DNA of 64,000 nucleotides from Rahnella sikkimica (GTDB lineage: Bacteria > Pseudomonadota > Gammaproteobacteria > Enterobacterales > Enterobacteriaceae): assembly GCF_002951615.1 (NCBI RefSeq), contig NZ_CP019064.1:124001-188000 (forward strand), given 5' to 3'. Numbering within the stretch: the stretch's first letter is position 1; every line of letters starts with the position of its first letter. The notes below the pieces were generated by a model. It was not told where the DNA came from. It did no database searches and saw only the letters and a program-made list of their open reading frames with translations. The position numbers and the translations under genes are program-made. This document shows positions 15,026-32,747 of this stretch, in pieces.

Positions 15026-15062
15026 TTGTCTTAAGTTGATGCTGCAGTTTCAAAGGAATGAC

Positions 15063-15329: not shown

Positions 15330-15367
15330 GCTCATGGCTTTAGACGTAATCCAGACGGGAGTTTTCA

Positions 15368-15742
15368 ATGAACCACATTCAATTTATCACTGATGAGCAT
15401 GGTGTAAAGCAGGCTGCTGTCATTCCGATGGAGCTGTTTGAGCGTCTGATGCAACAAGCCGATCTCGATGAGCTTTATGAAGACATCAGCGTTACTCCGG
15501 GTAAGCATGATGATGTGCAGATCCCAAATGAAATTGTAGAAATCATGGTGAGTAAAGATGTCACCATCCAGGCGGCGTGGCGTATTTACCGTGGACTGAC
15601 CCAAAAAGACGTTGCCGAAAAACTGGGGATTAAACAGGCCGCAGTATCTCAGTTCGAGAAGTCCGAGAACCCACGAAAAGACAAAATTGAGCGTTTGGCC
15701 CAGTTGTACGAATGCAAAGTGGAACAACTGACCATGGACTGA
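15368..15742 (+). CDS. XRE-family antitoxin
   Basis: 124 aa. The N-terminal ~50 residues (MNHIQFITDEHGVKQAAVIP) look like the Phd-like or prevent-host-death-style extension seen in several RelE partners. The C-terminal half is a helix-turn-helix of the Cro/C1 type (TQKDVAEKLGIKQAAVSQFE, residues ~77-96). It should neutralise the preceding toxin and repress the operon through the ATATAAGG-type repeats upstream. GGGAG lies 8 bp before the ATG. The two genes are 38 bp apart on one strand. Confidence 0.85.
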   Translation: MNHIQFITDEHGVKQAAVIPMELFERLMQQADLDELYEDISVTPGKHDDVQIPNEIVEIMVSKDVTIQAAWRIYRGLTQKDVAEKLGIKQAAVSQFEKSENPRKDKIERLAQLYECKVEQLTMD

Positions 15743-18792: not shown

Positions 18793-18899
18793 CGGGTCTA
18801 AAGTAACGTATCCGTCATACAGGGGGTCAGTTTGGATATCGAAAATTATTGTACGTTAAGGTTATTTTTTGTACCTCTGAGCTATGGTAAAACTTGACC

Positions 18900-19512
18900 A
18901 CTTTGACAGGCAGCTTTGAGCGAACAGCAGAAGTTCGCTGCTGTTCACTCGGGAGAGTGACCTTCCCCCTGATAGACCGCCACTACCTTTCACCCTCTCT
19001 TACGGTGGTTCACGCCAGCGACGCCCTGCCACAGCAGTTGAACGCACTGCAGGAAGCCGGAGGAGGGCTGGCATTAACACCGGTCAGTGAGCAGCGCGTT
19101 GGTTACGGACTTACGCTGCTTAATCATTTCAGGGGCATTGAAAGACAGGGATTGGGTATCGACGGAAATGCTCTGGCCGGGGGAGGAAACATGTTTGAAA
19201 CGCTTCGTATCTCTGCGCTTACCCAGAGCGGAGAAGCTAAGGATGAAACGCTGCCTGATCCTCGGGAACTGCTGAGGTTAGCAACGCGGCGCTCAGCTGA
19301 ATCTCTGGGGCTGAGTGATATTACCGGCACTCTGGAAGAGAGAAAACGGGCAGATAATTAACCCTGACAGTCTCAATGTGGCAGGTTTTGGCGGCGGCGA
19401 TCCTTCATCACTTATTGTTTACTCCGCTCAACCAGATAATGTTGAGACAGTGATCATCGATGGTCGAATTGTAAAAAAAGAGGGAAAAATGCAGGGTGTT
19501 AATCTGGAATAG
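18900..19512 (+). pseudogene. Remnant of an Atz/Trz-type amidohydrolase
   Basis: Two frames together give the C-terminal third of a chlorohydrolase/SsnA-like amidohydrolase: LALTPVSEQRVGYGLTLLNH, then GIDGNALAGGGNMFETLR (the metal-ligand Asp region is altered), LLRLATRRSAESLGLSD, then after a frameshift near 19345 NPDSLNVAGFGGGDPSSLIV and VETVIIDGRIVKKEGK. The 5' two-thirds are missing. A metabolic gene in decay, on the opposite strand to the hydrolase beside it. Confidence 0.65.
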
Positions 19513-19882
19513 CTGCTTAAGGCCGTAAATATTTCCGCAAAATCGTTATTAAAGCGCGATGAACCCTAAATAACTGTTCGCAACAGGAGATCACTTTGAG
19601 GGCGCTCAGCCGGATTGTGCGATCTGATTAATCACCAAACTCAGCATTATTCGCCCTGGTGCAACGCTGGCTGACGCCTTCAGCCAAAAAGATAACCTGG
19701 TGGATGCTCAGGAAGCCGCAAACTGCCCCCGCCGTGCAAGGCCGCTAAGCCGTCAGGAGCGGGAAGAGTATGACTTCTGAACCGACGTCAATGGTGGGTA
19801 GGATCAGTATTCCTGATGGCAGGTTTACAGAGAGACAAGATTTATCTTGCCTCTCTGCGGATTGTGCACTAATCCCTGAGCA
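19513..19882. other. Gene-free stretch ending in a terminator-like hairpin
   Basis: No intact gene or recognised remnant. Near the right end it carries the hairpin annotated at 19829-19856, which closes the large minus-strand operon. Confidence 0.4.
19829..19856 (-). terminator. Hairpin ending the biosynthetic operon
   Basis: AGAGAGACAAGA and TCTTGCCTCTCT pair with a single A-C mismatch around a TTTA loop, 27 bp beyond the stop of the MFS gene. There is no long T tract, so it may act as a terminator with help or as an mRNA 3'-end stabiliser. Confidence 0.55.
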
Positions 19883-21139
19883 CTACTCTGACACCGTGGA
19901 AGGCACAATCTTTGTTTTGACGCACAAACGGGAATACAGCCAGCCAATAAGCATAACGAGAGCGCCAGTCACACCGACGGCGAGAATGACTATCGCACCA
20001 GCGATACTACCTTTCTGGCTTATCAGATCAAAGATCACCGGGGAGAGGAAAAACAGCGTTGCCCCGCCAAGCATAGAAATAAATCCAAGAACGGCAGATG
20101 CTCTGGCGGGATCGGCCGTTCTCAGTATTTCACTTCTTATTATCGGTATATAAGCGCCTTTACCAACCATAAACCCGCTATAAGTGAGTAAAAATAGTGC
20201 GTAAGACCAGCTGTTTTCGACCAGAATCACCAGAAAAATACCGTGAATTAATACCGCTATCAGGATAAATGTTATTAATACGCCGAACGATAACGAGAGC
20301 CTTGATATAACGGTAGATGCAACGCCGCTGCCTAATAGCAGGAAACTAAACAGCATGGCTATCGAGTCTGAAGAGAATCCTTTTTCGCCAAGCAGCACTT
20401 GGGTAAAAGGGATGGAGAAAAATTCAATAAAGTAGAGGCAGGAATAAGCAATCGCTAGCGAGCTAATCCATAATTTTCCAGAAAAGTCTTGCCGTTGTGA
20501 GCCTCTTTCACGCTTGCTTTTGCCGCTGACCTGACGGTTTTCAGCATCATGGTGTGGGCAAAACAGATGAACCGTGGCGATAGCTGCTGCGATTGCGCCA
20601 ATGCTTAATATAAACAACCCACGCAATCCATAAAAATGTAAAAGAATGGCACCGCAGTTCACACCGACGAACAGAGAGAAATTGCGACTTGCCGTACCAA
20701 CAGATTCTGCCACACGATACTTGCTGGCAATTATCAGGTTAAGCAAAGACTGGCGGCAGCCTGCAGAATCTGAAACGGCAGTCAGACTGTGCCCCATCGC
20801 CACGATAATCTGAGCTGCAACACACTGTGAAAAACTGGTGCTGAACACCAGCAGCGTAAGAGAGGCAATAATCAGTGCGTTGCCGATATAAAGTCCGCGC
20901 CGGTGTCCATATCTGTCAGCTGCATAGCCTGAGGGAACGTCGGAGAACAGTTTGGTTCCCCAGTATGCTGCCTCCAGCCAGCCGATCTGGGCAACGGACA
21001 GCCCGATGCTGAGGTAAAAAGAGACCATTATGGCATAGTGAAAGGTCAGGTTTCTGAATACGCGAAAAATAGAAAAACCAAAGATTATTTTATGGTAGTT
21101 CTCTTTCAGATTCCCTTGCATAAAAAATGTTCTGTTCAT
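19883..21139 (-). CDS. MFS transporter, likely exporter of the cluster product
   Basis: 418 aa with about 12 hydrophobic segments. The loop between helices 2 and 3 reads DVPSGYAADRYGHRRGL, the signature of the major facilitator superfamily (DxPxGxxADRxGRR). It is the last gene of the operon, starting 3 bp after the ATP-grasp stop, which ties it to the pathway. Export of, and self-protection from, the product is the likely role by analogy with other biosynthetic clusters. The N-terminus MNRTFFMQGNLKENYHKIIF is a short cytoplasmic lead. Drug versus metabolite specificity cannot be read from sequence. Confidence 0.85.
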   Translation of the reverse strand: MNRTFFMQGNLKENYHKIIFGFSIFRVFRNLTFHYAIMVSFYLSIGLSVAQIGWLEAAYWGTKLFSDVPSGYAADRYGHRRGLYIGNALIIASLTLLVFSTSFSQCVAAQIIVAMGHSLTAVSDSAGCRQSLLNLIIASKYRVAESVGTASRNFSLFVGVNCGAILLHFYGLRGLFILSIGAIAAAIATVHLFCPHHDAENRQVSGKSKRERGSQRQDFSGKLWISSLAIAYSCLYFIEFFSIPFTQVLLGEKGFSSDSIAMLFSFLLLGSGVASTVISRLSLSFGVLITFILIAVLIHGIFLVILVENSWSYALFLLTYSGFMVGKGAYIPIIRSEILRTADPARASAVLGFISMLGGATLFFLSPVIFDLISQKGSIAGAIVILAVGVTGALVMLIGWLYSRLCVKTKIVPSTVSE

Positions 21140-21142
21140 AGG

Positions 21143-22432
21143 TTACACCAGCGGGGTGTCGATAATAAGTTTGATGCCATAATGTTGTGCGATGGCATTC
21201 AGTCCGTGACGGTTTTGCTCAAGCGCTAGGCTGCGTTGTTCTGCGGCATTAATAAACCAGCCCTGGGAGTCATAATTGCTTCTGAAGGCGTTAAACGAGG
21301 CGTTCTCATCAATTTTTATATAGAGATCGACATGATCATCTATAGTCAGTGCAGCATTTTTCTGTACCGCTGGTTTTCCTGCTTCCAGCGGCGCGATATG
21401 ATGTCCGACAGTGGTTTTTACTGGCTGTTGCGGGATATCGCCAAAGTCATTGCCAAGGTAAGCATCAATAATGGCCTGATCGAGATTAAACGCATAAGAA
21501 GAGATAATCATCTTACGGCCATTACCACCAATTATTCTTGGGTTGATCTCTATCAGTACTATCTCATTACCCGTATCAATCACTTCGACATGGAATATCC
21601 CACGCCCAAGATTGATGGCGGCGACGCAGTTGATGGCGTAGGAAGATATTTCTCTGAATTTATCTGCACTGGTATTGGCGGGTATAATTGCGCCCAGCTC
21701 AACGAAGGATGAGGTATTCCAGACAATTTTTTCAGTAACGGTGATACATCTTAATTCACGACCATTGGCAATCAGCTCCACGGAGTACATTTTGCCGGAT
21801 AAATACCTTTCGGCTAGAAATCCATGTGATAACACCTCGGCATCAATGCCGGTATCATTTGCCGAGGGCTGGGCATGTTGCACCAGAAACAGCTGTAAAT
21901 CTTTTTCATTTTCTATGATATCGATAAATTTGCTGACTGCCCCACGGCGAGGTTTGACAATCAGCGGCAGGCCGATTTCCTCAACGGCACGGTAAATTTC
22001 TCCTCTCTCGCGTAGTTCATACCAGGGCAAAGTCGGAATACCCTGCTCATGTAGAAAGGCGCGGCAGCGCAGCTTATCCCGGCAGATTGCGACAGCCTCA
22101 GCGTGAGTGAAGGGGAGATGCAAATCATCTGCAGCCTGCGCACAGGCATTAATGGCTATTTCAAAAAAACAGATAACGGCATCGATCTGATGCTGCTGAG
22201 TGATGGTGGCTAATGCGGATCTGACATCTTCGCGTTCGGCGCTATTGTCCACCCAGATTAAATTCTGTAACCGCGACTGCAGCGCGCGGAATTCCGGCCC
22301 GTCATAAGAGTCAGAATAACGTCGTGAACCGACATAGCTGACCCGGTAGCCGGCATCCAACGCGTAATGGAGCGTTTTAAGATTGGTATAACGCGTTTCC
22401 ACAAAAACCAGGTGTGAACTTTTTGCTTCCAT
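21143..22432 (-). CDS. ATP-grasp ligase (carboxylate-amine ligase type)
   Basis: 429 aa. ATP-grasp features: LPLIVKPRRGAVSKFI near residue 153 (ATP-binding lysine and glycine-rich loop), FLAERYLSGKMYSVELIANG near 205, and the metal-binding HVEVIDTGNEIVLIEINPRI near 278. This resembles the BL00235/L-amino-acid ligase branch that joins a carboxylate to an amine through an acyl-phosphate. In Pantoea an ATP-grasp enzyme of this kind makes the dapdiamide amide bond; sequence identity with that enzyme was not tested. It lies 80 bp after the carrier-protein gene and 3 bp before the exporter gene. Likely role: forming an amide in the final product. Confidence 0.85.
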   Translation of the reverse strand: MEAKSSHLVFVETRYTNLKTLHYALDAGYRVSYVGSRRYSDSYDGPEFRALQSRLQNLIWVDNSAEREDVRSALATITQQHQIDAVICFFEIAINACAQAADDLHLPFTHAEAVAICRDKLRCRAFLHEQGIPTLPWYELRERGEIYRAVEEIGLPLIVKPRRGAVSKFIDIIENEKDLQLFLVQHAQPSANDTGIDAEVLSHGFLAERYLSGKMYSVELIANGRELRCITVTEKIVWNTSSFVELGAIIPANTSADKFREISSYAINCVAAINLGRGIFHVEVIDTGNEIVLIEINPRIIGGNGRKMIISSYAFNLDQAIIDAYLGNDFGDIPQQPVKTTVGHHIAPLEAGKPAVQKNAALTIDDHVDLYIKIDENASFNAFRSNYDSQGWFINAAEQRSLALEQNRHGLNAIAQHYGIKLIIDTPLV

Positions 22433-22512
22433 ATCTCTTCTTCCTGTACGTCACCGAGGAAATTAACCGTGAAATAGTATTGAGACCATCTGCGGCGATA
22501 AAAACGCGATCT

Positions 22513-23187
22513 TCACCTTGATTCGATAGCCTGACAGAGAGCGTCAAATGAAGTGAGTTCAGAAATAGCGCTACCGGAGAGCGTAATGCCAAATTTTTCT
22601 TCAACTTCCAGCGCAATTGCGATTTGAATCATTGAGTCCCAGCCAGAAATATTATTCATTCGCAGCTGCTGATCGGATTTACCGACCGAGTCCGGCAAAA
22701 TCTGATTAAGCAGGGCACGTAGTGCGCTGCGCGAGTGCGTTACTGCAGCGTTGACCCCCGCCGGCGTGGGGGCTGTTTTTTCTGGCGGGATATCGTGCAG
22801 CGCAGCGGCGCTTTTTTCTTCATCCCGTAACTCGAAAAGTCCATTACTGGTCAGAATGTAATGCCCTGCCAGACGCTGCTGCTGAAGCCCCGTGGTGAGC
22901 ACGCTTTCTGCCACCTCTTCCGGTTCAAGCGGCGTTGTGCCAGGGAGATCCAGAGCAGATGAAAACGCGCTGCGCGTTAAATCACACAAAATAGTGGTGG
23001 TTTCGATGCCATTTTCCCGGTACCGCAGAGCGGTCTGCTGCAGATACCAGTCTGCGAGGCTTTTCGCTCCTGCGTAGTCGGTTAGTGGTTCACTGGCCCG
23101 TTGTTGAGCAACAGAACCAATATTAATGATGCGCCCGCGCTGGGCGGCAAGCATGCTAGGCAGAGAGGCTTCCGTCAGCGATTTCAA
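22513..23187 (-). CDS. C-terminal SDR part plus acyl carrier protein (3' half of a broken gene)
   Basis: 224 aa from ATG 23187. Residues 1-110 are the second half of a short-chain dehydrogenase: GRIINIGSVAQQ, then the YxxxK pair in DYAGAKSLADWYLQQ. Residues ~150-224 are an acyl carrier protein with GWDSM, whose serine takes the phosphopantetheine arm. The same frame continues upstream without a start to about 23290 (AEAVKQYQPALIIHSASADI), joining the 3' end of the MaoC-SDR frame. It is therefore the 3' half of one MaoC-SDR-ACP protein. It could still be translated separately and supply a working carrier domain, but the reductase lacks its cofactor half. Confidence 0.75.
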   Translation of the reverse strand: MKSLTEASLPSMLAAQRGRIINIGSVAQQRASEPLTDYAGAKSLADWYLQQTALRYRENGIETTTILCDLTRSAFSSALDLPGTTPLEPEEVAESVLTTGLQQQRLAGHYILTSNGLFELRDEEKSAAALHDIPPEKTAPTPAGVNAAVTHSRSALRALLNQILPDSVGKSDQQLRMNNISGWDSMIQIAIALEVEEKFGITLSGSAISELTSFDALCQAIESR

Positions 23188-23255
23188 CGATTGGTAATTG
23201 GTGGCAATCAGCTCCTGCAGTGGTGCGATGATGTCGGCGCTGGCGCTGTGAATAA

Positions 23256-23822
23256 TCAGCGCTGGCTGGTACTGTTTAACCGCCTCCGCCAGCCTGCTTT
23301 TTCAAATTGCGTTGCACAAGCGGAGCCTATTGCACCGTCAGATCCGGTAATCAGCACAAGATTATTTGGCTGCTTAAGCGTAAATTCAGCGGTGAGATCG
23401 GCGGGAATTTCCCATTCATCAAATCTGGCCTGTACCACCATTTCACCTGAAATCAGCGCAACGGTTTTTTCGTATGCCTTGAGCTCAAGTTTCAAAATCC
23501 TTTTTTCCGCAGATATATGGGTTATTTTAGCGGAGTAGGTAATATCCCGGTCATAGTGTACCGGGCTGTGTGCGTTATACGATGATGAGATAATTAAGGA
23601 TGGCACCCCCGGAAAGGCCATTCCCGCAATAGCTGAAAACGGCGAGGTCGCCAGCCCCAGCGGAAGTATCAGCTGAGCACTTCCCGAGGCAAGAGCAAAG
23701 TCGCGGTTCCAGTGCAGAGGATTTGAATCTGCACTGAAGTCGCGGAATTTCTCGTAATCTGTCAGAGAGAATGTTTTGTCAAACGATACATACTGCCCAA
23801 CAGAAAACTGGCTGAATTTCAT
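23256..23822 (-). CDS. MaoC-like hot-dog domain plus N-terminal SDR stub (5' half of a broken gene)
   Basis: 188 aa. Residues ~1-125 are a MaoC-type dehydratase/hydratase hot-dog fold with the active-site pattern DSNPLHWNRDFA near residue 30. A linker leads into an NAD(P)-binding start, LVLITGSDGAIGSACATQFE (about 151-170). After KAGW the frame turns and stops at SQR. About 38 residues expected between the glycine-rich loop and the IIHSAS strand of the dehydrogenase are missing, and the reading frame changes at the junction near 23290. The start overlaps the preceding gene by 4 bp (ATGA). Function of the intact form: hydration or dehydration and keto-reduction of a carrier-bound acyl group. 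Confidence 0.78.
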   Translation of the reverse strand: MKFSQFSVGQYVSFDKTFSLTDYEKFRDFSADSNPLHWNRDFALASGSAQLILPLGLATSPFSAIAGMAFPGVPSLIISSSYNAHSPVHYDRDITYSAKITHISAEKRILKLELKAYEKTVALISGEMVVQARFDEWEIPADLTAEFTLKQPNNLVLITGSDGAIGSACATQFEKAGWRRRLNSTSQR

Positions 23823-26341
23823 AAAGGGAGTTCCTCAAGCCCTGAAAGGGTCACTGCCGGGATGGCAACACTGATGCTGTCGGCGCTGGCAGTCCAGCTA
23901 CCATCCTGCTCGGTAAACTTTAAGCCGCTGAGAATATCGGCGACGATATGGTTTTTACTGGTTTTAATAAATTCCACGCGGAGAGCACGCGCGAAACGCT
24001 CGAAAGTCTGTTTTGTCAGCACGTGAAAAATAGCCTGCTCAATACCTTTACCAAATGCGCGACAGGAAATAACGATTGAATCGACAACCTCATCTTTCAT
24101 CACCAGTACGCCCATTATCTCCTGCGGATTATATTTATCTGTCACCTCTAATACCTTTACCGTATAACCACGATCTTGCAGAGATTTTAAATCCAGCGCG
24201 CTGTATCGCTTAATCGTGGTATTAAACTGATTGGTTTTTGTCATCAGCTGTTCAGCACGCGAACTGTTTCCGGACGATAGTGCCGAAAATGTCAGCGTGA
24301 CATTGAGCTCCTTAATAAAGGAGAATGCGTCAGAGGCGCTGCTGCGCGCTGTGGCTACGGTTTTGAGCTGCTTAAATGACTGCACGCGATGACGGTCATT
24401 TTCGGTGATCAGCGCCCGGTTAAGCCCCGGTGTTTTAATCAACACTTCACAATAGAGGGCTGGTTCATTGCCCAGCTCAGGCACAATGACCTGCGGGAGC
24501 GTGCGTCTGACCGCTTCGCGCTCAATCGGATTATCATCCAGGAACATAATATTAGAGAGACCGAGATTTAAACGGCTCGCAATACGCTGGATTGAGTCCG
24601 CCTTTGGTTGCCAGTGGATCTCATCGTCGACGAAGTCATCCCGCTGCAGAACCATTTCCGGGTGGCGATCAATAATTTCCCATGCGACATCTGCATCGTT
24701 TTTACTGGCGACAGCCAGTCCGATCCCACACTGCGACAGGGACTTAAGCAGCAGCTGAAAATCTCTGTGGGCGTTGCCCGGATAGTCTCCTCCCAGCGCC
24801 ACGCCTTCAATGCCATCATCGGTTGCCACACCGCCCCACAGCGTGTTATCGAGATCCACCACAATCAGACGCACGGAAAGACCGCAGCGGTCGAGGATCA
24901 AACCGGCTATCCGGTTGGCCGCAGCCCGGGCAAACTGAGGGGACCAGGGCGTACGCGCCAGATACCAGGTGCGCGGATCGCGAAGCGGGCTGGCTGCCTC
25001 TGCGGCCAGGGTTGCGGTATCTATCAGGATGCCGCCGCGCTGACGTAACTCTGCGCTTAGCTGAGCGGCAAGCTCTTCTACCTCTGCGTCATACCGTGTG
25101 GAAGAAGCACCAACGCCTTCATCCGCCGGCGCAGAAATGCTCCAGACCGGTTTAAACACCACCACCTGATGGTCACTGTTTGCCATCCATGAAGAGACAG
25201 CGCTGTGCCAGCGCTGTAACCGACTGTGGTGGCTCTCCTCATCGAGCGCATAACGCCCGGCCTTACCGCTGATGCTTTCGAGTGTATCGGCAATAATCGT
25301 CAGGTTGGGTTTGAAGTCGCGGAGGGAAGAGTCGTTTAAGGTCAGATCCTGATAGAAGTTGCCATAGTGATTGGCATAAAAAACAAAACGTCTTGACGGA
25401 GCAGCGATCGCCAGCTGCTTTTTTAACGCTTCTACAAGGTAATCGGGATTCTCGGCGCTGAGCAGTGCAACGCGAAACGGCTGCTGCTGCTGCTGTAACT
25501 CAAGGTTGGCAATATCGGCAGCGACCCGGTTGCCTTCTTGCAATAAGAAAAATGGGCTGGCGGCCATCTCCCGGTTACAGATGTTCACGATAGTGCGCAG
25601 CCAGACAAATTTAATCTCTCCCTGTCCCAGCGCAAACGAGGTAACGACCCCCTCTGCTTCTGCTGTCAGCCCCGCCGCGGCAAAGTTCAGTTCAGTGTTG
25701 ATATCGCGGCGGCGCACATAAACGCGCATATCCGGGTCAACCGGCCCGTTGCCGAAGTCCGCAAGGATATTAAAGGTTTTAAATTCACGGTAGGGGACGG
25801 CGTGCTGTTGCTCCATTTTATGCAGAAAGCTGAGGTAATCCCAGGCTGCGCCAATCATCAGCGCACCGGCATTCTGCTCTTCAAGCACCGCAAAAACCGA
25901 GCGCGGACCATAGGCATCGTGGTGATCGGCATTTAAAAACAGGGGGGATTTGGGGCCGATAACCACAAAAGAGAAAATTGGATTGGGTGTGCGCCTCGCT
26001 TCCGGCAGACTCAGCACCCAGTCCGCCAGCACCCCGGTTTCCGACGGAGAATGGTGAATATTGAACTCTTTGCCCGCTGAATAGGAAAACGTAAATGCGG
26101 GAAACAGTAACGTTTTACCCTGTCTTACTAGTTCTCTGATTGCACGCAGAAAACTCCATTTGGCTGTACCGCGTTTCAGCCCGGAGAGCGTTGGTATTGA
26201 GGAGTGCACTTCAATAACATCGCAATCTGCATCCAGCACTTTATGGATGGCAAAGAGGATCTCCCGGGTGGTTAAAATCTCCCTTTCTCCCCTGAAGGGG
26301 ATACCCGCAGAAAATACCTGACCAGTTCCCATGGCGATCAC
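23819..26341 (-). CDS. Fusion of an AAC(3)-like acyltransferase, an FkbH-like HAD domain and a GNAT-like domain
   Basis: 840 aa. Residues ~20-280 resemble AAC(3)-type antibiotic N-acyltransferases (EVHSSIPTLSGLKRG, LLFPAFTFSY, GAAWDYLSFLHKMEQ). A linker leads to a HAD subfamily IIIC domain with VVDLDNTLWGG near residue 492, GLAVASKNDADVA near 540 and NIMFLDDNPIER near 592, as in FkbH. Residues ~660-810 resemble the GNAT-like tail of FkbH proteins (TKTNQFNTTIKRYS, VLVMKDEVVDSIVISCRAFG). FkbH proteins load a glyceryl unit from 1,3-bisphosphoglycerate onto an acyl carrier protein, and a carrier domain is encoded two frames downstream. The AAC(3)-like part may transfer an acyl group to an amine. 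It starts at GTG (26341), overlapping the previous stop; ATG 26332 is an alternative. Confidence 0.85.
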   Translation of the reverse strand: MIAMGTGQVFSAGIPFRGEREILTTREILFAIHKVLDADCDVIEVHSSIPTLSGLKRGTAKWSFLRAIRELVRQGKTLLFPAFTFSYSAGKEFNIHHSPSETGVLADWVLSLPEARRTPNPIFSFVVIGPKSPLFLNADHHDAYGPRSVFAVLEEQNAGALMIGAAWDYLSFLHKMEQQHAVPYREFKTFNILADFGNGPVDPDMRVYVRRRDINTELNFAAAGLTAEAEGVVTSFALGQGEIKFVWLRTIVNICNREMAASPFFLLQEGNRVAADIANLELQQQQQPFRVALLSAENPDYLVEALKKQLAIAAPSRRFVFYANHYGNFYQDLTLNDSSLRDFKPNLTIIADTLESISGKAGRYALDEESHHSRLQRWHSAVSSWMANSDHQVVVFKPVWSISAPADEGVGASSTRYDAEVEELAAQLSAELRQRGGILIDTATLAAEAASPLRDPRTWYLARTPWSPQFARAAANRIAGLILDRCGLSVRLIVVDLDNTLWGGVATDDGIEGVALGGDYPGNAHRDFQLLLKSLSQCGIGLAVASKNDADVAWEIIDRHPEMVLQRDDFVDDEIHWQPKADSIQRIASRLNLGLSNIMFLDDNPIEREAVRRTLPQVIVPELGNEPALYCEVLIKTPGLNRALITENDRHRVQSFKQLKTVATARSSASDAFSFIKELNVTLTFSALSSGNSSRAEQLMTKTNQFNTTIKRYSALDLKSLQDRGYTVKVLEVTDKYNPQEIMGVLVMKDEVVDSIVISCRAFGKGIEQAIFHVLTKQTFERFARALRVEFIKTSKNHIVADILSGLKFTEQDGSWTASADSISVAIPAVTLSGLEELPL

Positions 26342-27033
26342 CTTGTTTCCCCGCTGTTCTGCGCTGAAAAAATTTGACGATAGTCGGCAAGCAGGTCATT
26401 GAAGTCGGCATAAACCGTTGCACCCGACGTGCGCAGTTGCTCTGCTTTTGTCCCTTCGCCAATGCCCAGGAACTCATAACCAAGATTTCTGGCGGTCTTC
26501 AGATCCCAGATGCCATCGCCTATCGATATCACCCGCTGTGGCTGGCGGATTTGATAACGCAGGCTGCCAGCCTGAACGGCCTGCTGGACAATCTCTTCAC
26601 GCGTATGAAACTCTGATGCCGTAATCAGAATAAAGTCATCAGGATCAATGCCAATCACGCTCAGCTTGTGCAGAGCGCCTGAACGCAGGCTGCCGGTGGC
26701 GAAAACAATGCCCCACGTCTGGCTGAGGCTGGCAATAAAAGCAGAAGCGCCCGCAACTGGCGTCACCGGATGCTGCGCCAGCACCTGGTCATAAGCGAGG
26801 CGGTACTGCTCTTCAAGCTGTATAAGGTCTGGTTTACCGTTAAAGCCCGCCAGCTCCCAGGCTTCATAAAAGATCCCGCTATCTGAGTGGTGCTGGTATT
26901 GCCCCCAGTCAGTGGATAATGCCGGGAAAGGGAAAGAGCGTAACGACTGTTCAAACGCAATCTGGTGTGGACGCACGCTGTCAGTCAGCGTGCCGTCAAT
27001 ATCAAGAACAATAATTGAATCTGCGGATGACAT
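26338..27033 (-). CDS. HAD-superfamily phosphatase
   Basis: 231 aa. The nucleophile motif VLDIDGTLTDS lies at residues 9-19, a motif II-like FATGS near 116, a conserved lysine-region basic residue, and motif IV SIGDGIWDLKTARNLG near 171. The DxDGTxxD signature and size fit subfamily IA phosphoglycolate-phosphatase or phosphonatase-like enzymes with a helical cap. It may dephosphorylate a pathway intermediate, for example after the nucleotidyl- or alcohol-transfer step. It begins 14 bp after the phosphatidyltransferase gene and overlaps the next start by 4 bp. Confidence 0.85.
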   Translation of the reverse strand: MSSADSIIVLDIDGTLTDSVRPHQIAFEQSLRSFPFPALSTDWGQYQHHSDSGIFYEAWELAGFNGKPDLIQLEEQYRLAYDQVLAQHPVTPVAGASAFIASLSQTWGIVFATGSLRSGALHKLSVIGIDPDDFILITASEFHTREEIVQQAVQAGSLRYQIRQPQRVISIGDGIWDLKTARNLGYEFLGIGEGTKAEQLRTSGATVYADFNDLLADYRQIFSAQNSGETR

Positions 27034-27047
27034 TAAAAGATCTCCAG

Positions 27048-27662
27048 TTAAAATGTTGCCGGAAATAACACACGGCTGAAGGAAAGAGTAGCCAGAAAAA
27101 TAAGAATCAATGCGAAAAGATAGAGCCCCTTGTGGCTGAATTTAGGGAAATAAAATTTACCGGTTTGTAGTGCCACCATAATAAGTGAGTAAAGAATATA
27201 AACGACCGATGCTGATTGCTGCGCCGGGAACAGGTTGGCAACAATACCCAGGGTCAGCGGTAGATATGTCACCGGCACGCCAACAAAGAAACCGGGTTTG
27301 TCTGAGCCCACGGCGGTGAAATAGGCCAGCCTTGTCGTTCCTGCGGCGGCAAGGATAAGGCCGCACAGAATGCCAGTCAGCGATCCTCCCTGTGCAAGCG
27401 TGACAAACAGCGCGGGTGCCAGCACGCTGTGACACATATCTCCCAGCGTATCCAGCCCCTGGCCAAACTCGCTGAAAAGCAGTGGACGGTTTAGCGTTTT
27501 TCTGGCTAAAGGCCCGTCAAAAACGTCGGCAATGGCACCCAGCAGAATAAAGCCTAGGGCCAGAGACATCTCTGATTGGGTCAGAGAATAAAGTGCCACA
27601 CAGCCCGCAATAAACCCGAAAAAAGAGCAAAGGTTGGCCCGGTCTTGATAAAAACTCAGCAT
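27048..27662 (-). CDS. CDP-alcohol phosphatidyltransferase family enzyme
   Basis: 204 aa with about six membrane helices. The metal-binding catalytic motif is intact near residues 46-74: DVFDGPLAR, then G, QGLD and TLGD, fitting D(x)2DG(x)2AR...G(x)3D(x)3D with the longer spacing seen in PssA-like members. Such enzymes transfer a phosphoalcohol from a CDP-ester to an acceptor alcohol, or use CDP-diacylglycerol with a small alcohol. It starts 1 bp after the nucleotidyltransferase-aminotransferase gene, so the two probably work in sequence: one makes a CDP-activated head group and this one transfers it. A membrane lipid or a lipid-like product is therefore possible. Confidence 0.88.
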   Translation of the reverse strand: MLSFYQDRANLCSFFGFIAGCVALYSLTQSEMSLALGFILLGAIADVFDGPLARKTLNRPLLFSEFGQGLDTLGDMCHSVLAPALFVTLAQGGSLTGILCGLILAAAGTTRLAYFTAVGSDKPGFFVGVPVTYLPLTLGIVANLFPAQQSASVVYILYSLIMVALQTGKFYFPKFSHKGLYLFALILIFLATLSFSRVLFPATF

Positions 27663-27663
27663 A

Positions 27664-29526
27664 TTAAGACGCCACTGCAGAAATAAATTTACTGGCTTTA
27701 CGTAAAACCGCGCGTGAAATAGCCTCTGTCAGTTTTCTGTTATCTTTACCATTACGCGAAGAAACGCGGAAATATTGCTGAGAGTCTTGCAATATTTTTC
27801 CGGAGCAGTCTTTAAGGAATATGGCATCTGTCTGCAGAAGTTCTGTGATCAATTCACGTGCGGTTCCCAGTTCATTATCCAGACGGCAAAAGATAAAGTT
27901 GGCCTCAGTAGGGAAAACCTGTAATCCGGGAATATCGCTGAGCGCTTTTTGCAATGCTTGCGTTTCATCAAACACTTTCTGACATGAGGCTTCGTACTCT
28001 TTGCGGTGAGCGGAAAACATTCTTAAATACTCTTCAGCAAAGGAGTTGATGTTCCAGATTGGCAGCCGCTGGCGCACGTCAGCAACCCGCTCCTGATTTG
28101 CTGAGGCAAATAATCCCAGACGAATGCCGCCAATACCGTGCGATTTACTCAGGCTGAACAGCAGCGACAGATTAGTATGCTGCAGCAGATCAGGCAGGAA
28201 TGACGGCGTGCGTCCTTGTCCCTGGAAGTCGACAAAAGACTCATCAAGAATTACCTCAATACCCAGCTCCTGCGCGCCTCGAGCAATCAGGGCGATATCC
28301 TCTCTGGTCAGAGCATTACCGGTCGGATTGTTGGGGGATATCAGCACAATGTGCCCGACACCGGTTTCTCTTGCATATTCAAGGATTTTTTGTGGACTGA
28401 GCGCAAATCCATCCTCTTCGCTCAGCATAAAGCGTCGCACCAGATGCGCGGGGATAACCGCTTCATATTCGTTAAAGGAGGGGCTGGGGATCACCAGCGG
28501 TTTGTTAATGCCGGATAACAGCAGGGGGATCAGCTCACTGACGCCGTTTCCTACCACCAGGTTTGTTGCCTGCACGCCATAGTATGATGATAGATGTTCA
28601 ACTATCGGCTTCTGCGCTGAGGGATATTCACGTACCAGATTCACTAACCGGGCGGAGAGGTGATCCAGCAATTTTTTCGGTGGATAATGGAAGTTATACA
28701 GTAGGCAGTGATCCTGCACCGGATAGCGCCAGTAACCGCCGTGCCTTTTTTCAAGCCATGTCTGTTGATCTTCAACCGGCTTGAGCAGATATTCGGCAAT
28801 ATCGAGGTCGTTAAGATTATCGACTTCATACCAGTCATATGAAGGAACAATGGATGCCTGAAAATCCTCAATCCCCTCGGAGATGGCTTGAGCAAAAAGC
28901 GTTTCATAGTAATCTGACAGTTCGTCACTATTTACCTTGTGCTGAAGCTGCGGTAAAAGCCAGCCGCTGGCAAATGATGATGACAGACGGTAGAAGTTTA
29001 ACGTCTTGTAATGATGCGGGCCCTGCTTATGCACCGGCACCTGTTTTGGCGCGGTGACAACCAGCGGAACACCTCTCAACTCCACGCATGCGCCATCCAT
29101 AAAAATCGCTTTTGGCGCAACCATGCAGGCGCTGGTATTTTTCTTACCGCCGACCAGTTGTTCAAGCACAGAGCTGCGTAAAACAACATCGGCCTCTAAC
29201 AGCAGAAAGTCTTCAGTAAAATACTCTCTGGCAAGCCATAGTGAATAGATATTATTTGTCGTCTGATAGCGGGTGTTTTCAATAAAGGTGATATCGACAT
29301 CAGGGAATGCAAGATTCAGCTGCGACTGAATTTTTTTACCAAAATGTCCTGTTACAACCACTATCTGATTAACACCAGTTTCCTGCAGATTAATAACCAG
29401 TCGTTCAATAATGCTCTTACCGTTAACGGGAGTTAACGGCTTCGGGATAATTTCAGTAATTGGGAAGAGACGATTACCTGTTCCGGCTGCAAGAATAACA
29501 GCTTTCTTAATAGATTCATCAGACAT
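27664..29526 (-). CDS. Nucleotidyltransferase-aminotransferase fusion
   Basis: 620 aa from ATG 29526, preceded by AGGAAG; a longer frame to 29586 lacks such a site. Residues ~7-240 are a sugar-phosphate-type nucleotidyltransferase: AVILAAGTGNRLFPITEIIP, then PKPLTPVNGKSIIERL and a DxD-like LLLEADVVL. Residues ~265-620 are a PLP fold-type I aminotransferase or CobD/HisC-like decarboxylase: SPNNPTGN near 395, LDESFVDF near 432 and the PLP lysine in SLSKSHGIGGIRLG near 460. Cytidylyltransferase-aminotransferase fusions are known in phosphonate and phosphocholine-type pathways (PntC, LicC relatives). Here it probably makes an amino-alcohol phosphate or amino-phosphonate and activates it with CTP. 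It lies 4 bp after the preceding gene. Confidence 0.85.
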   Translation of the reverse strand: MSDESIKKAVILAAGTGNRLFPITEIIPKPLTPVNGKSIIERLVINLQETGVNQIVVVTGHFGKKIQSQLNLAFPDVDITFIENTRYQTTNNIYSLWLAREYFTEDFLLLEADVVLRSSVLEQLVGGKKNTSACMVAPKAIFMDGACVELRGVPLVVTAPKQVPVHKQGPHHYKTLNFYRLSSSFASGWLLPQLQHKVNSDELSDYYETLFAQAISEGIEDFQASIVPSYDWYEVDNLNDLDIAEYLLKPVEDQQTWLEKRHGGYWRYPVQDHCLLYNFHYPPKKLLDHLSARLVNLVREYPSAQKPIVEHLSSYYGVQATNLVVGNGVSELIPLLLSGINKPLVIPSPSFNEYEAVIPAHLVRRFMLSEEDGFALSPQKILEYARETGVGHIVLISPNNPTGNALTREDIALIARGAQELGIEVILDESFVDFQGQGRTPSFLPDLLQHTNLSLLFSLSKSHGIGGIRLGLFASANQERVADVRQRLPIWNINSFAEEYLRMFSAHRKEYEASCQKVFDETQALQKALSDIPGLQVFPTEANFIFCRLDNELGTARELITELLQTDAIFLKDCSGKILQDSQQYFRVSSRNGKDNRKLTEAISRAVLRKASKFISAVAS

Positions 29527-29530
29527 ATAT

Positions 29531-30790
29531 TTATCTTCCTGTGGCAATATTTTCCGGGATATGTTGGTCTTCGGTATATGCGTCAATAATTACATCTCCG
29601 ACATCGTTTATGTATAGCCAGACGCCATCTAATCGCCCTTTAAACGAGGGTTCCCCTCCTGCTTTTTCTGAAGGAGATAAGCCTGCTCCCAGTCCAAATG
29701 AATAAAGGCCAGGAACGGGATTTCCAGCGATATCTCTGACTCGTCCATCTGTATCTTTCCCGGATAACCCGGTAAAGGGGCTGGCTGAACGATATCCTGT
29801 TGCGAGGATACAGAGCTCCTGATTACTGCTGTTGCTGGCAGTAATAAAGGGATTATCGCTAACGATAAAATTGACTGCAGGACTCTGTGGGCTCACAGAG
29901 CCGGTGCGGAAAATAGAGAGTGCTGCCTGATGGGAGTCGTATCTCAGTCCGGCAAAGCGGTTAATGCGACCACTGAGAGGGCAGACATCCGCGACGGGAT
30001 CGAATGCATATCCTTCATCCTGGGCAGCGGCTGCGGTTTCAAAATAGAGACGTGGAAGCGAGCGACAGTAGATCGTAATAGCCACGCTTGCGTTGTCGGC
30101 AATCTCAGAGAGTCTGATAACGCTGGAGATCGCGCTGTGTGACCCGCCGATAATCGCGACGCGCTGAATCTTATGCCGGTGTAACAGGGCGCTGGCATCA
30201 TCTTTATCGATACTCAGAAACTCGTCAGAGGTGACAGCAACGGGGGCGATATCATTGAGTAGCGACTGCTCAGCCGTCTGGTATCCGCCACAATTGGTGA
30301 AAACGAATTCACTTTCTGCCGTGGCGATATTGCCATTATGGTTAAAAGAAATAGAAAAACTCTTCCCTGACCTCTTTATCTGCGTAACCTCTGCTTCACG
30401 ATAGAGTGTTATCTGATATTTTTCAGCCAGACGTGAAATTATTTTTTCTGCCAGTCTTTCTAACAGATCGGCTACAAGAGATAGCTGTGGTGCTGTATCC
30501 GGATAATCTCTTAAAAATGTGAGTGCGTCGCCGCCGATAAAATCAGAAGTTAATTCATAAAATCGTGGGTCGTCGATGCATTCTAAAAAAACAGATGAGA
30601 GGGAATTGGCTGTTATCTGATAATATCCCAGTTTGCCAGCTCCCAATCGGGGTGATTTTTCAAAGATGGCAATACCATTCTTTGCTATCTCTGAAAGTTT
30701 ATTTTTCCGATATGCAGAAAGAAGTAATCCTAAATTGGCTGGTCCAAAACCAACTAATGCGGTCGTATACAGGCGGTGAGTATTTCCCAA
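29531..30790 (-). CDS. FAD/NADPH-dependent monooxygenase-like protein (N-hydroxylase style)
   Basis: 419 aa. The FAD-binding motif VGFGPANLGLLLSAY lies at residues 13-27 and the NADPH-binding motif AIIGGSHSAISSV near residue 212. GFGPANLGL resembles the GxGPxNLxLA motif of lysine/ornithine N-hydroxylases (IucD, PvdA, SidA), and a late ATGYR (LATGYRSASPF) is also typical. It could hydroxylate an amine nitrogen, but it may be a more distant flavin oxidoreductase. The start is TTG at 30790, chosen because GGAAGGGGG lies at the right distance; no ATG is available. It is the first gene of the operon. Confidence 0.82.
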   Translation of the reverse strand: MGNTHRLYTTALVGFGPANLGLLLSAYRKNKLSEIAKNGIAIFEKSPRLGAGKLGYYQITANSLSSVFLECIDDPRFYELTSDFIGGDALTFLRDYPDTAPQLSLVADLLERLAEKIISRLAEKYQITLYREAEVTQIKRSGKSFSISFNHNGNIATAESEFVFTNCGGYQTAEQSLLNDIAPVAVTSDEFLSIDKDDASALLHRHKIQRVAIIGGSHSAISSVIRLSEIADNASVAITIYCRSLPRLYFETAAAAQDEGYAFDPVADVCPLSGRINRFAGLRYDSHQAALSIFRTGSVSPQSPAVNFIVSDNPFITASNSSNQELCILATGYRSASPFTGLSGKDTDGRVRDIAGNPVPGLYSFGLGAGLSPSEKAGGEPSFKGRLDGVWLYINDVGDVIIDAYTEDQHIPENIATGR

Positions 30791-31052
30791 TATCTGTCCC
30801 CCTTCCTTTGTTTTGTATTTTATCTTCGTGGAAATATGAATTTCATTAATGTTTGTATATCACGACTGTCACAAAAAATCATATAAGGATTTGAGATAAC
30901 TTTATGACAGGGTGGTGTTTCGTAGGGGGGGAGAGTACATCCTGATGGATAGTCGGGTGGATACGGAGAGTGAAAACCCGCCTCTGCTATAAAGTGGGCC
31001 ATCCCTGAGAAGATGACATTGGATTTGAACAAGGGGTCGGACGTTGAGCAGA

Positions 31053-31645
31053 CTACTCAACGTCGTCAGATAGCGACTTAATCTCCCAGTTTTTACCGGG
31101 TGGGGCCTTCAAAGTAGATGCTACTGATATGACAACTACGCGGTTGTCCCAGCACAAAACGAATGGTTTCCCAGATCGAGCGCCATTCAATAAACGCTCC
31201 CCCATTTTGGATTGGCTATGGATAAACGTATCTAACCCTGTCAGTTCGAAATCCGGGGGATACAACCCGGTCACACGTATATTCTCATTGGAGAGCAGAT
31301 GAGAAATTTTATTTGTAAACCCGCTAAGTCCATGTTTACTTGCAAAAAAAGCGGGGTGCGCAATTGAATCCGTAAAATTATGAATCCCGCAGGAAGATAT
31401 AATTGAGATAATATCCGCACTTTCTGAATGCCTTAATCCTGGCAGTAATGACTGAGTCAGTAAAATCGAACCTGTCAGTCCTGAACTGATAGTGCTAATG
31501 ATTTCTGTGTCTGGTTGGTCGTCTAAAGATCCTGACAGCCACCGAGCAGCATTGAGAATCAAAATATCTATGGGTTTGTCTGAAGTTAATAACTTTGAAG
31601 AAAACTGAGAAAGGGCATCAGGCTGGGTTAAATCACAGACATACC
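31053..31645 (-). pseudogene. 5'-truncated short-chain dehydrogenase
   Basis: The frame is open from about 31645 and reads CDLTQPDALSQFSS, then DILILNAARWLSG (the NNAG-like strand), DIISIISSCG with catalytic Ser, and PAFFASKHGLSGF in place of YxxxK. The glycine-rich cofactor loop and start are missing, cut off next to insertion-sequence debris. The catalytic tyrosine appears to be phenylalanine (FFASK), a further sign of decay. It ends 263 bp upstream of the FAD gene on the same strand and may once have belonged to the biosynthetic operon. Confidence 0.65.
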
Positions 31646-31899
31646 TGAAAAAAACCTGCCAGCGTGTTTTTTAGTTTTTAGAGCAAGAGATTACGACGTT
31701 AAAAATTATCTCAAGAAGATCATCTAAGATCAGTTCACCCTCGATAAGGTAGCTCCGAAATATCGACCGTAATTTCACATGACTTAGATTCACTAATTGA
31801 ATTCAACTTTAATATAATCATGGAAAATGATATTAATGATAAATCCTGACTTTTAGATGGCCCCAGCATAACCCCTTTAATTTCTGATAACTTATAACC

Positions 31900-32070
31900 A
31901 TGTATGGCCAGTATCCTGTTTTGTTTCATGATCTTGGCTACCCGGTTTCTGCTGCACGCTTCACCGACTTCACGTAGGTCGCAGTGAACCCTGCGATAGC
32001 CGTAAACACCACCGCTCAGTGCATAAGAGTCGCGGATTAATTGCTGCCATACGCTGGGTCTGAAGATCAT
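31900..32070 (-). mobile_element. IS3-family transposase OrfB fragment
   Basis: The minus strand reads VWQQLIRDSYALSGGVYGYR then RVHCDLREVGEACSRNRVAK and HGYK, the HTH_21-type region of IS3-family OrfB. It breaks off into unrelated AT-rich sequence (31735-31895) on one side and abuts an IS110 fragment on the other. Only about 55 residues of the transposase remain. Confidence 0.75.
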
Positions 32071-32071
32071 T

Positions 32072-32423
32072 CTATTTTCTAACAGTCGGCTCTGTCGCCT
32101 GAGCGAAGCGACATATCACTGCTGCATCAATCGCATCAGTTTTGGCGAGCTTCTCCAGCGTCCGGGCAAAGTTTTTAACCTGTCGTGGGTTAACCACTGC
32201 GACGGGAAGTTTTGCCAGCGTGAGCTCATAGCAAAGTGGGCCGTGATATTTGCCCGTCGCTCCCATAGAAATGAGTTCAATATCGTAGTATGTGAGCAGG
32301 CTGATTAAGGCCTGAAATCCTGAGGGTGTATTGTCAATACTGAGCCAGACAATTGTCTGTACTGATAAAAATATCGAATTTCTCTTTGGCAATATCAATG
32401 CCGACGTACGTTTTAGATGTCAT
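32072..32423 (-). mobile_element. IS110-family transposase fragment, frameshifted
   Basis: From ATG 32423 the frame reads MTSKTYVGIDIAKEKFDIFI, with the first catalytic Asp of the DEDD transposase. A frameshift near 32345 moves to the frame PSGFQALISLLTYYDIELIS then LEKLAKTDAIDAAVICRFAQ. The C-terminal half is gone. The region to about 32610 may be its left end. Not functional. Confidence 0.75.
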
Positions 32424-32747
32424 AACATGTCTTCCCGCCTTGTCTGATACGGACTGACGTTGCCGTCGTCCTGGCAGCTGTTCGGGCTCATCATGAAACC
32501 AACGTGGCGCAATAAGCTCCTCGACGGGCTTGGAGTACCAGAGGAAAAACGTGCTGCCACGCCGGGTACAGCGCAGTAAAACTAATCTTTGTGCAGCAAC
32601 TACAAACATACAAGGACAAGAAGGGAGGCGTTAAGTACCTGTCATATTCAAGAAATAAAATTCTTTGTTTAATAACTTCGTTCTCGCGTTCAAAGCTTCA
32701 ACCCCTTCGCAATACATGACCTTAAAGGTATTGAAAGACGGATCCTA

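What the first reader, a model, noticed from the sequence alone, without database searches (positions are those of the whole stretch)
19829..30790. Undescribed eight-step operon combining CDP-alcohol transfer, carrier-protein acyl loading and ATP-grasp ligation
Eight gene products are encoded head-to-tail on one strand with overlaps or gaps of a few bases, ending in a hairpin: N-monooxygenase-like flavoprotein, nucleotidyltransferase-aminotransferase, CDP-alcohol phosphatidyltransferase, HAD phosphatase, AAC(3)/FkbH/GNAT-like fusion, MaoC-SDR-ACP, ATP-grasp ligase and MFS exporter. I know of no described cluster with this set. It joins lipid-headgroup chemistry with FkbH-type acyl loading and peptide-type ligation. 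Phosphoenolpyruvate mutase, the usual mark of phosphonate pathways, is absent in the window. A small antibiotic, siderophore-like compound or modified lipid is possible.
Basis: partly seen in the sequence, partly recalled or inferred. Interest (0 to 1): 0.9.

Follow-up and report, generated by a model that had tools for sequence, protein, structure and literature searches.

The report
Phosphonate-free fosmidomycin-like antibiotic operon
A plasmid operon in an Erwinia-like bacterium resembles the late steps of a known antimalarial and antibiotic pathway but lacks its carbon-phosphorus step, so it may make a phosphate-ester relative of fosmidomycin, a class isolated in 1990 for which I found no described gene cluster.

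Summary
The eight-gene operon is real (window 19883-30790, minus strand, hairpin after it). One gene is broken: MaoC-SDR-ACP lacks 85 bp between two 12-bp repeats and is frameshifted; an Erwinia rhapontici plasmid carries an intact copy. The set is not without precedent. Its flavoprotein and nucleotidyltransferase-decarboxylase, and more distantly its AAC(3) domain, correspond to FrbG, FrbH and FrbF of FR-900098 biosynthesis, but no PEP mutase was found in the whole genome. In 83 flavoprotein loci, those with the fusion gene also hold an acyl- or formyltransferase (18 of 18); those without it hold none (0 of 65). Some Pseudomonas and Photorhabdus carry a simpler operon with a formyltransferase, the set that fosfoxacin/fosfocytocin would need. 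Priestia megaterium carries the core next to a plasmid dxr, the fosmidomycin target. I infer: phosphoserine to CDP-ethanolamine, N-hydroxylation, N-acylation by an FkbH-made acyl group, giving a phosphate-ester hydroxamate, then elaboration by a CDP-alcohol transferase, a phosphatase and an ATP-grasp ligase. No chemistry was tested; substrate, acyl group, acceptor and target are inferences. New variant of a known kind.

The parts
29531..30790 (-). FrbG-like flavin N-hydroxylase (419 aa)
   Evidence: 29% identity (162 bits) to the flavoprotein of Streptomyces rubellomurinus ATCC 31215, the FR-900098 producer; one homologue is named FrbG by UniRef; the family profile reaches KtzI and MbtG only weakly
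27664..29526 (-). FrbH-like cytidylyltransferase + CobD-type PLP decarboxylase fusion (620 aa from ATG; the TTG ORF runs to 29586)
   Evidence: 34% identity to the S. rubellomurinus counterpart, GxGxR..PK and PLP-lysine motifs kept; CobD profile 155.2 bits, below cut-off 290.55
27048..27662 (-). CDP-alcohol phosphotransferase (204 aa)
   Evidence: PF01066 above cut-off; DxxDGxxAR...GxxxDxxxD motif; homologues beside the same core in Priestia and Saccharothrix
26338..27033 (-). HAD phosphatase (231 aa)
   Evidence: PF00702/PF13419 above cut-off, DxDGT motif; 32-38% homologues in L050, L064, L071, L084
23819..26332 (-). AAC(3)-type N-acyltransferase fused to FkbH (HAD-IIIC + acyltransferase)
   Evidence: PF02522 84.5 bits, TIGR01686 253.1 bits above cut-off; the two parts adjoin in one frame in L050, L071, L084, L124, L125
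23256..23822 (-). MaoC domain and start of SDR: 5' part of the broken MaoC-SDR-ACP gene
   Evidence: MaoC DxNPLH and SDR TGxxxAIG motifs
23287..23298 (-). junction of an 85-bp deletion: the one remaining copy of a 12-bp direct repeat
   Evidence: alignment with pERA53 and pERA55; BLAST segments overlap by exactly these 12 bases
22513..23187 (-). rest of SDR and carrier protein (ACP): 3' part of the broken gene, other frame
   Evidence: YxxxK motif; ACP identical to that of L003, with GWDSM in the translation
21143..22432 (-). ATP-grasp ligase (429 aa)
   Evidence: PF02655/PF13535 above cut-off; best NCBIfam PRK02186, 130 bits, below cut-off 625
19883..21139 (-). MFS exporter (418 aa)
   Evidence: PF07690 66.9 bits, above cut-off
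19827..19858 (-). 14-bp hairpin after the last gene
18823..31326 (.). 12.5-kb block shared with E. rhapontici plasmid pERA53 (two segments, 99.33% and 99.39%)

Best explanation
The operon is a PEP-mutase-free relative of the FR-900098 pathway that makes a phosphate-ester (not phosphonate) hydroxamate of the fosfoxacin/fosfocytocin type, further elaborated. Proposed steps: (1) the NTase-CobD fusion joins O-phospho-L-serine to CMP and decarboxylates it to CDP-ethanolamine (inferred; FrbH does this to 2-amino-4-phosphonobutyrate, the CH2 isostere of phosphoserine); (2) the FrbG-like flavoprotein N-hydroxylates the CMP-linked amine (inferred from homology); (3) FkbH loads a three-carbon glyceryl unit on the ACP, MaoC-SDR reshapes it (perhaps to lactyl), and the AAC(3) domain transfers it to the hydroxylamine, giving a hydroxamate (inferred); (4) the CDP-alcohol transferase moves the phospho-hydroxamate from CMP to an alcohol acceptor, with the HAD and ATP-grasp trimming it and adding an amino acid, possibly as a delivery form (least certain); (5) the MFS protein exports it. 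The likeliest target class is DXP reductoisomerase or another phosphate-binding metalloenzyme. In the window's strain the MaoC-SDR-ACP gene is broken, so step 3, and hence the product, is probably lost or altered there.
For: Positive control: the locus of the FR-900098 producer (L069) holds PepM with motif, AAC(3), flavoprotein, NTase-CobD, NUDIX and DXR. Of 83 flavoprotein loci, 18 have NTase-CobD and all 18 an AAC(3) or formyltransferase in the stretch held; 65 have neither. The PepM motif is in 1 of those 18 loci, the control. Priestia plasmid pBM700: ATP-grasp x2, flavoprotein, AAC(3), NTase-CobD, CDP-alcohol transferase, then dxr. Pseudomonas piscis, 3 further Pseudomonas and 9 Photorhabdus loci: MFS, flavoprotein, NTase-CobD, N-formyltransferase, HAD (Pfam for L070 and L073; tblastn for the rest), the set needed for an N-formyl-N-hydroxy product; fosfoxacin came from P. 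fluorescens (passages). FrbH is a cytidylyltransferase-decarboxylase (passage) and FrbG recognises the CMP moiety (passage). NTase-CobD also lies beside a SAM methyltransferase and LicD in Gloeothece, with no PepM motif in the stretch, as expected of a CDP-ethanolamine maker. The acyl cassette AAC(3)-FkbH + MaoC-SDR-ACP recurs in L050, L071, L084 with the core and, without it, in L124 and L125 in nonulosonate-type clusters (ACP not detected in L125).
Against: No metabolite or enzyme was tested. The window has no dxr copy and its genome only one, so the DXR target is inferred from two relatives. Two genomes with PepM-less clusters (S. katrae, Saccharothrix) hold a PepM motif on other contigs, and a Rhizobium plasmid has a related CDP-alcohol transferase in a locus with PepM, so phosphonate substrates are not excluded in the wider group. 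The AAC(3) domain is only 18% identical to that of the FR-900098 locus. The window flavoprotein groups with other proteins, not with FrbG, in a tree with many long branches. The NTase-CobD scores are below the NCBIfam cut-offs in all 25 families shown of 92. Acyl identity and acceptor are guesses. The gene for step 3 is broken in this copy.
Confidence: 0.6

Rival explanations
1. The operon makes a true phosphonate: the NTase-CobD acts on 2-amino-4-phosphonobutyrate or a similar compound supplied from elsewhere.
For: The closest biochemically known relative, FrbH, uses a phosphonate (passages); two genomes with related clusters carry an unlinked PepM; a related CDP-alcohol transferase lies in a PepM locus.
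Against: No PepM found in the window's own genome; no PepM motif in 17 of 18 core loci. The other early FR-900098 genes were not searched for.
Confidence: 0.1
2. The operon modifies membrane lipids or a surface polymer: the CDP-alcohol transferase puts an N-modified ethanolamine head on a lipid.
For: CDP-OH_P_transf family; best profile matches are archaetidylserine synthase and PssA; the acyl cassette also occurs in nonulosonate surface-glycan-type clusters.
Against: Both scores below cut-off; an MFS exporter and an ATP-grasp ligase are part of the unit; a homologous set sits beside dxr in Priestia, as in the FR-900098 control locus, and the formyltransferase operons show no such transferase.
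Confidence: 0.12
3. The product is a hydroxamate metal chelator (siderophore-like) and not an enzyme inhibitor.
For: N-hydroxylation plus N-acylation gives hydroxamates; exporter present.
Against: Only one hydroxamate per nucleotide-activated unit is predicted; two relatives carry dxr. Receptors and iron-regulation sites were not searched for.
Confidence: 0.08
4. In this strain the operon is a decaying remnant with no product.
For: 85-bp frameshifting deletion in MaoC-SDR-ACP; only 1 of 14 genomes of the genus, the window's own, has the AAC(3)-FkbH gene.
Against: The other seven genes are as long as in MAFF 311153 and keep their motifs where checked; 99% identity to a plasmid with an intact copy. 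This concerns activity, not what the system is.
Confidence: 0.4

Closest known systems
FR-900098 biosynthesis (frb cluster, Streptomyces rubellomurinus)
   Same: FrbG-like N-hydroxylase, FrbH-like cytidylyltransferase-decarboxylase and an AAC(3)-family acyltransferase, with CMP as a handle
   Different: No PEP mutase, no NUDIX hydrolase, no dxr in the window operon; the acetyl donor is replaced by FkbH + MaoC-SDR-ACP, and a CDP-alcohol transferase, HAD and ATP-grasp are added
Fosfoxacin / fosfocytocin / fosfadecin (nucleotide and phosphate antibiotics, 1990; no gene cluster found described)
   Same: Predicted P-O-CH2CH2-N(OH)-acyl core, made without PEP mutase and through a CDP intermediate (that fosfocytocin is a CDP ester is recalled)
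   Different: The candidate fosfocytocin operon uses a formyltransferase; the window uses a custom acyl cassette and further tailoring
Priestia megaterium QM B1551 pBM700 cluster (no description found)
   Same: Flavoprotein, AAC(3), NTase-CobD, CDP-alcohol transferase, ATP-grasp
   Different: Has dxr and a second ATP-grasp; FkbH and MaoC-SDR-ACP were not detected in the stretch held
FkbH glyceryl-ACP loading systems
   Same: FkbH domain above the curated cut-off with an ACP
   Different: Fused to an AAC(3) domain, no polyketide synthase in the operon; paired with MaoC-SDR-ACP
Argolaphos pathway (alp cluster)
   Same: ATP-grasp ligase matching PRK02186, predicted cytidylyl activation, MFS (passage)
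   Different: PEP mutase based phosphonate; different core

Membership tests
FR-900098 (frb) pathway | FrbG-type flavin N-hydroxylase | tested here: met
   29% / 162 bits to the S. rubellomurinus locus; activity not tested
FR-900098 (frb) pathway | FrbH-type cytidylyltransferase-decarboxylase fusion | tested here: met
   34% identity, motifs kept; activity not tested
FR-900098 (frb) pathway | FrbF-type (AAC(3)) N-acyltransferase | tested here: inconclusive
   same Pfam family, only 18% identity
FR-900098 (frb) pathway | PEP mutase (EDKxxxxxNS) | tested here: not met
FR-900098 (frb) pathway | second dxr for self-resistance | tested here: not met
   one DXR in the genome
Fosfocytocin/fosfoxacin pathway (no reference cluster) | PepM-free core of N-hydroxylase and NTase-decarboxylase | tested here: met
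Fosfocytocin/fosfoxacin pathway (no reference cluster) | N-formyltransferase | tested here: not met
   not among the window operon's genes; present in nine Photorhabdus loci, L073 and L126-L128
Fosfocytocin/fosfoxacin pathway (no reference cluster) | the compound itself | not testable with these tools
   needs metabolite analysis
FkbH domain family (TIGR01686) | score above curated cut-off | tested here: met
   253.1 against 146.65 bits
CDP-diacylglycerol-serine transferase PssA (TIGR00473) | score above equivalog cut-off | tested here: not met
   59.7 against 107 bits
Phosphonate biosynthesis | PEP mutase in the genome | tested here: not met

The most novel reading that the evidence does not exclude
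There is a whole, undescribed family of PEP-mutase-free biosynthetic operons, spread over Erwinia, Photorhabdus, Pseudomonas, Priestia and actinomycetes, that builds fosmidomycin-like hydroxamates on ordinary phosphate by turning phosphoserine into CDP-ethanolamine. It includes the missing genes for fosfocytocin/fosfoxacin; FR-900098 is a later phosphonate offshoot that borrowed the FrbF-G-H trio; and the Erwinia version makes a new phosphodiester, aminoacylated, custom-acylated member.
Probability: 0.45. Interest if true: 0.87.

Novelty: new variant of a known kind. Interest (0 to 1): 0.72.

Why it matters
Fosmidomycin-type compounds are studied as antimalarials and antibacterials. Phosphonate genome mining looks for PEP mutase, so a phosphate-ester branch would be missed. 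The comparison gives a concrete, testable five-gene candidate for fosfocytocin/fosfoxacin, known since 1990 without genes as far as I found, and a larger family with new acyl groups and possible delivery forms. It also hints at where the FR-900098 late genes came from: the only NTase-CobD with a PepM in its own locus, in a tree of 16, branches among those from PepM-free loci (midpoint root, one such member only).

Tried and rejected
PEP-mutase phosphonate pathway in this genome: rejected. Second DXR as resistance gene in this genome: not found. Pantoea clusters: one paper search listed PMC4010436 on a Pantoea cluster; it was not opened, so a match there is not excluded by reading. Flavoprotein-only Pseudomonas loci (first suspected to be fosfadecin clusters because P. 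viridiflava is among them): no NTase-CobD or acyltransferase in the stretches held and a separate clade, so set aside; some of these stretches are cut short by contig ends. FrbG structure in the PDB by family profile: not found. Lactyl as the acyl product is an idea from recalled bryostatin-type FkbH/DH/KR logic; the paper search for it listed one paper, not opened. Acceptor of the CDP-alcohol transferase: alignment did not settle it. Promoter and terminator pattern scans gave hardly more sites than shuffles (16 against a mean of 14.6, and 16 against 12.7).
Full report
What is there. Eight genes run head to tail on the minus strand from 30790 down to 19883, with gaps of 4, 1, 14, 5, -4, 80 and 3 bases, and a strong hairpin follows at 19827-19858. 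Two corrections matter. The MaoC-SDR-ACP gene is broken: 85 bp between two copies of a 12-bp repeat are missing compared with E. rhapontici MAFF 311153 and 311155, which shifts the frame and leaves ORFs 23256-23822 and 22513-23187. And the nearest relatives of the DNA are two E. rhapontici plasmids (2 of 72,556 plasmid records, 99.4% and 99.2%); the second, pERA55, is annotated in many small fragments and was left out of counts. The shared block is 18823-31326; beside it the window carries F-type transfer genes about 88% like those of Rahnella plasmids. In the family sample 5 of 392 genomes have the flavoprotein, the window's genome and four of one other genus; in the genus 1 of 14, the window's own, has the AAC(3)-FkbH gene.

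Identity of the core. A search with the flavoprotein found 60 proteins, among them the same gene of E. rhapontici and one named FrbG by UniRef. A scan of one genome each for 84,980 species, with one peptide pattern, gave 84 relatives of which the best 80 were kept, among them Streptomyces rubellomurinus ATCC 31215, the FR-900098 producer (L069). That record came without annotation; I named its genes by content. There the flavoprotein gene lies between an AAC(3) gene and an NTase-CobD gene, with PEP mutase, NUDIX and DXR genes near, so the method recovers the known pathway. Published passages say that FrbH is a cytidylyltransferase fused to a decarboxylase acting on 2-amino-4-phosphonobutyrate (PMC8976061; PMC6697681) and that FrbG hydroxylates an aminopropylphosphonate unit within a CMP conjugate and recognises the CMP moiety (PMC7347517). 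The window fusion is 34% identical to the L069 fusion and keeps the nucleotidyltransferase and PLP motifs.

Association. Taking the window, L003, L006 and L012-L091 (83 loci; L004 and the short L092-L096 left out), 18 have both flavoprotein and NTase-CobD and all 18 also have an AAC(3) or formyltransferase gene within the stretch held; 65 have neither (tblastn). Stretches from the genome scan reach at most 10 kb to each side and some end earlier at contig ends. The 18 are not independent: 9 are Photorhabdus and 2 are Erwinia. The PEP-mutase motif EDKxxxxxNS occurs in 1 of the 18, the FR-900098 control. In six relatives' genomes with PepM-free clusters there are 20 above-cut-off PF13714 matches; 17 were fetched and 2 carry the motif: S. 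katrae and Saccharothrix, on contigs other than the cluster's. The three not fetched lie in frames of 439-458 aa, isocitrate-lyase size. The window's own genome has two matches, neither with the motif.

Variants that explain the chemistry. (a) P. piscis and nine Photorhabdus loci have MFS, flavoprotein, NTase-CobD, N-formyltransferase and a HAD gene in that order; in one of the nine, L081, the NTase-CobD gene is interrupted. In 398 Pseudomonas genomes, 7 have NTase-CobD at E 1e-60: P. piscis, three more with the same five genes (L126-L128), and three without flavoprotein in the stretch held (L129-L131; L131 is cut by a contig end); in L129 the neighbour is a LicD gene. The formyltransferase keeps the NxH motif and its PDB matches include nucleotide-sugar N-formyltransferases. 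Flavoprotein plus decarboxylating NTase plus formyltransferase is what an N-formyl-N-hydroxy-aminoethyl phosphate on CMP would need. Fosfoxacin, the natural phosphate congener of fosmidomycin, was isolated from P. fluorescens in 1990 and inhibits DXR (PMC9782300; PMC9919496; passages). That fosfocytocin is its CDP ester is recalled; I saw only the title of the 1990 paper in reference lists. (b) Priestia pBM700 has ATP-grasp, ATP-grasp, flavoprotein, AAC(3), NTase-CobD, an unannotated CDP-alcohol transferase, then dxr. A dxr was found in 52 of 72,556 plasmid records at E 1e-20; of the 30 listed several are chromosome-sized. Whether the Priestia chromosome has its own was not checked. (c) Saccharothrix has AAC(3), flavoprotein, NTase-CobD, a CDP-alcohol transferase (29%, 54 bits), HAD, two ATP-grasps and an MFS. 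(d) Two Streptomyces (in L084 the contig begins inside the flavoprotein) and a Kutzneria MAG have flavoprotein, NTase-CobD, AAC(3)-FkbH, MaoC-SDR-ACP and HAD, with an AMP-binding gene; MaoC of L050 was found by Pfam, not by tblastn. L050 also has two ATP-grasp genes (one below the Pfam cut-off) and an MFS. No CDP-alcohol transferase was detected in these three loci by tblastn; PF01066 matches exist in their genomes and were not mapped to the loci.

The acyl cassette. AAC(3)-FkbH followed by MaoC-SDR(-ACP) also occurs without the core in Maritalea and Sinorhizobium plasmids, with pseB and a NeuB-type gene in the first and NeuB and a CTP_transf_3 cytidylyltransferase in the second (the ACP part was not detected in L125). 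In the plasmid collection 4 of 136 records with a match cover at least 80% of AAC(3)-FkbH: the two Erwinia and these two. So it looks like a movable module that makes an acyl group on a carrier and places it on an amine. This supports N-acylation as its job here. The acyl group is unknown; FkbH chemistry suggests a glyceryl start, and MaoC plus SDR could turn it into lactyl (recalled logic).

Direction of evolution. In a tree of 16 NTase-CobD proteins the one from the PepM locus groups with four from PepM-free actinomycete loci (99/100 support), inside a larger PepM-free set when rooted at the midpoint. Long branches make finer placements unsure, only one PepM-linked member was included, and two of those four genomes hold a PepM elsewhere. 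A flavoprotein tree of 98 rows needs 7 changes for the NTase-CobD label, and the window protein groups with unnamed database proteins and a Rhizobium protein, not with FrbG, so the flavoprotein does not track one clade.

What is shown and what is inferred. Shown: gene content, order, homology, no PEP mutase found, association counts, the deletion. Inferred: every substrate and product, the order of late steps, the target, the role of export. The late steps are the weakest. The CDP-alcohol transferase, HAD and ATP-grasp suggest, as a working idea, a phosphodiester carrying an amino acid that is trimmed after uptake; that fosmidomycin must be actively carried in, for example through GlpT (PMC9919496, passage), shows why a delivery form could matter.

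Literature. Ten searches of the open-licence library were used. Nine papers hold fosfoxacin, fosfocytocin or fosfadecin; none, by title or the start of its abstract, concerns their genes. I read passages of four of these and passages of five other papers. Subscription papers are not covered, so prior description elsewhere is possible. PMC9296572 (passage) says that biosynthesis of this pharmacophore seems to have evolved independently at least twice; a phosphate route would add to that.

Verdict. A real, recurring biosynthetic core with a known cousin, in a PEP-mutase-free and heavily tailored form; the copy in the window is probably not fully active.

Noticed in passing
L073 8545-14608; L070 8403-14671; L126, L127, L128: Five-gene operon MFS, flavoprotein, NTase-CobD, N-formyltransferase, HAD in Pseudomonas and Photorhabdus: candidate genes for fosfocytocin/fosfoxacin.
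   Followed up: partly
L006 7540-15644 (Priestia megaterium pBM700): PepM-free FrbG/FrbH/AAC(3)-like cluster with an unannotated CDP-alcohol transferase at 13859-14434 and a dxr gene directly after it.
   Followed up: partly
L129 1496-11611, also L130, L131: NTase-CobD fusion in Pseudomonas without the flavoprotein; in L129 with GTP cyclohydrolase II, RibD, LicD, FGE-sulfatase and MatE genes (toxoflavin-like by recall).
   Followed up: partly
L007 9974-13436: NTase-CobD, SAM methyltransferase and LicD in a row on a Gloeothece plasmid, as if making CDP-choline from phosphoserine.
   Followed up: no
L124 12013-15991; L125 11872-16089: AAC(3)-FkbH and MaoC-SDR(-ACP) pair inside nonulosonate-type clusters: apparently a movable N-acyl cassette.
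   Followed up: partly
65 of the loci L012-L091: Flavoprotein of the FrbG family without NTase-CobD or acyltransferase nearby, mostly in Pseudomonas, most of them in a separate clade; function unknown.
   Followed up: partly
L005 14131-17913: Agrobacterium vitis NTase-CobD (55% to the window) appears cut at its 5' end next to an IS21 gene, followed by a CDP-alcohol transferase (49%).
   Followed up: no
L081 12049-14188: NTase-CobD gene of Photorhabdus thracensis interrupted by about 1.1 kb.
   Followed up: no
window 18894-19361 and 31053-32609: Truncated amidohydrolase on one side, truncated SDR and IS3/IS110-like remnants on the other side of the operon block.
   Followed up: partly
window 15036-15742: ParE-like toxin gene next to an HTH protein gene: a likely toxin-antitoxin pair.
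   Followed up: no
window 34790-38146: 1118-aa ORF without a Pfam match at E up to 0.001.
   Followed up: no
L004 (pERA55): The operon region of E. rhapontici MAFF 311155 is annotated in many fragments, perhaps from sequencing errors.
   Followed up: no
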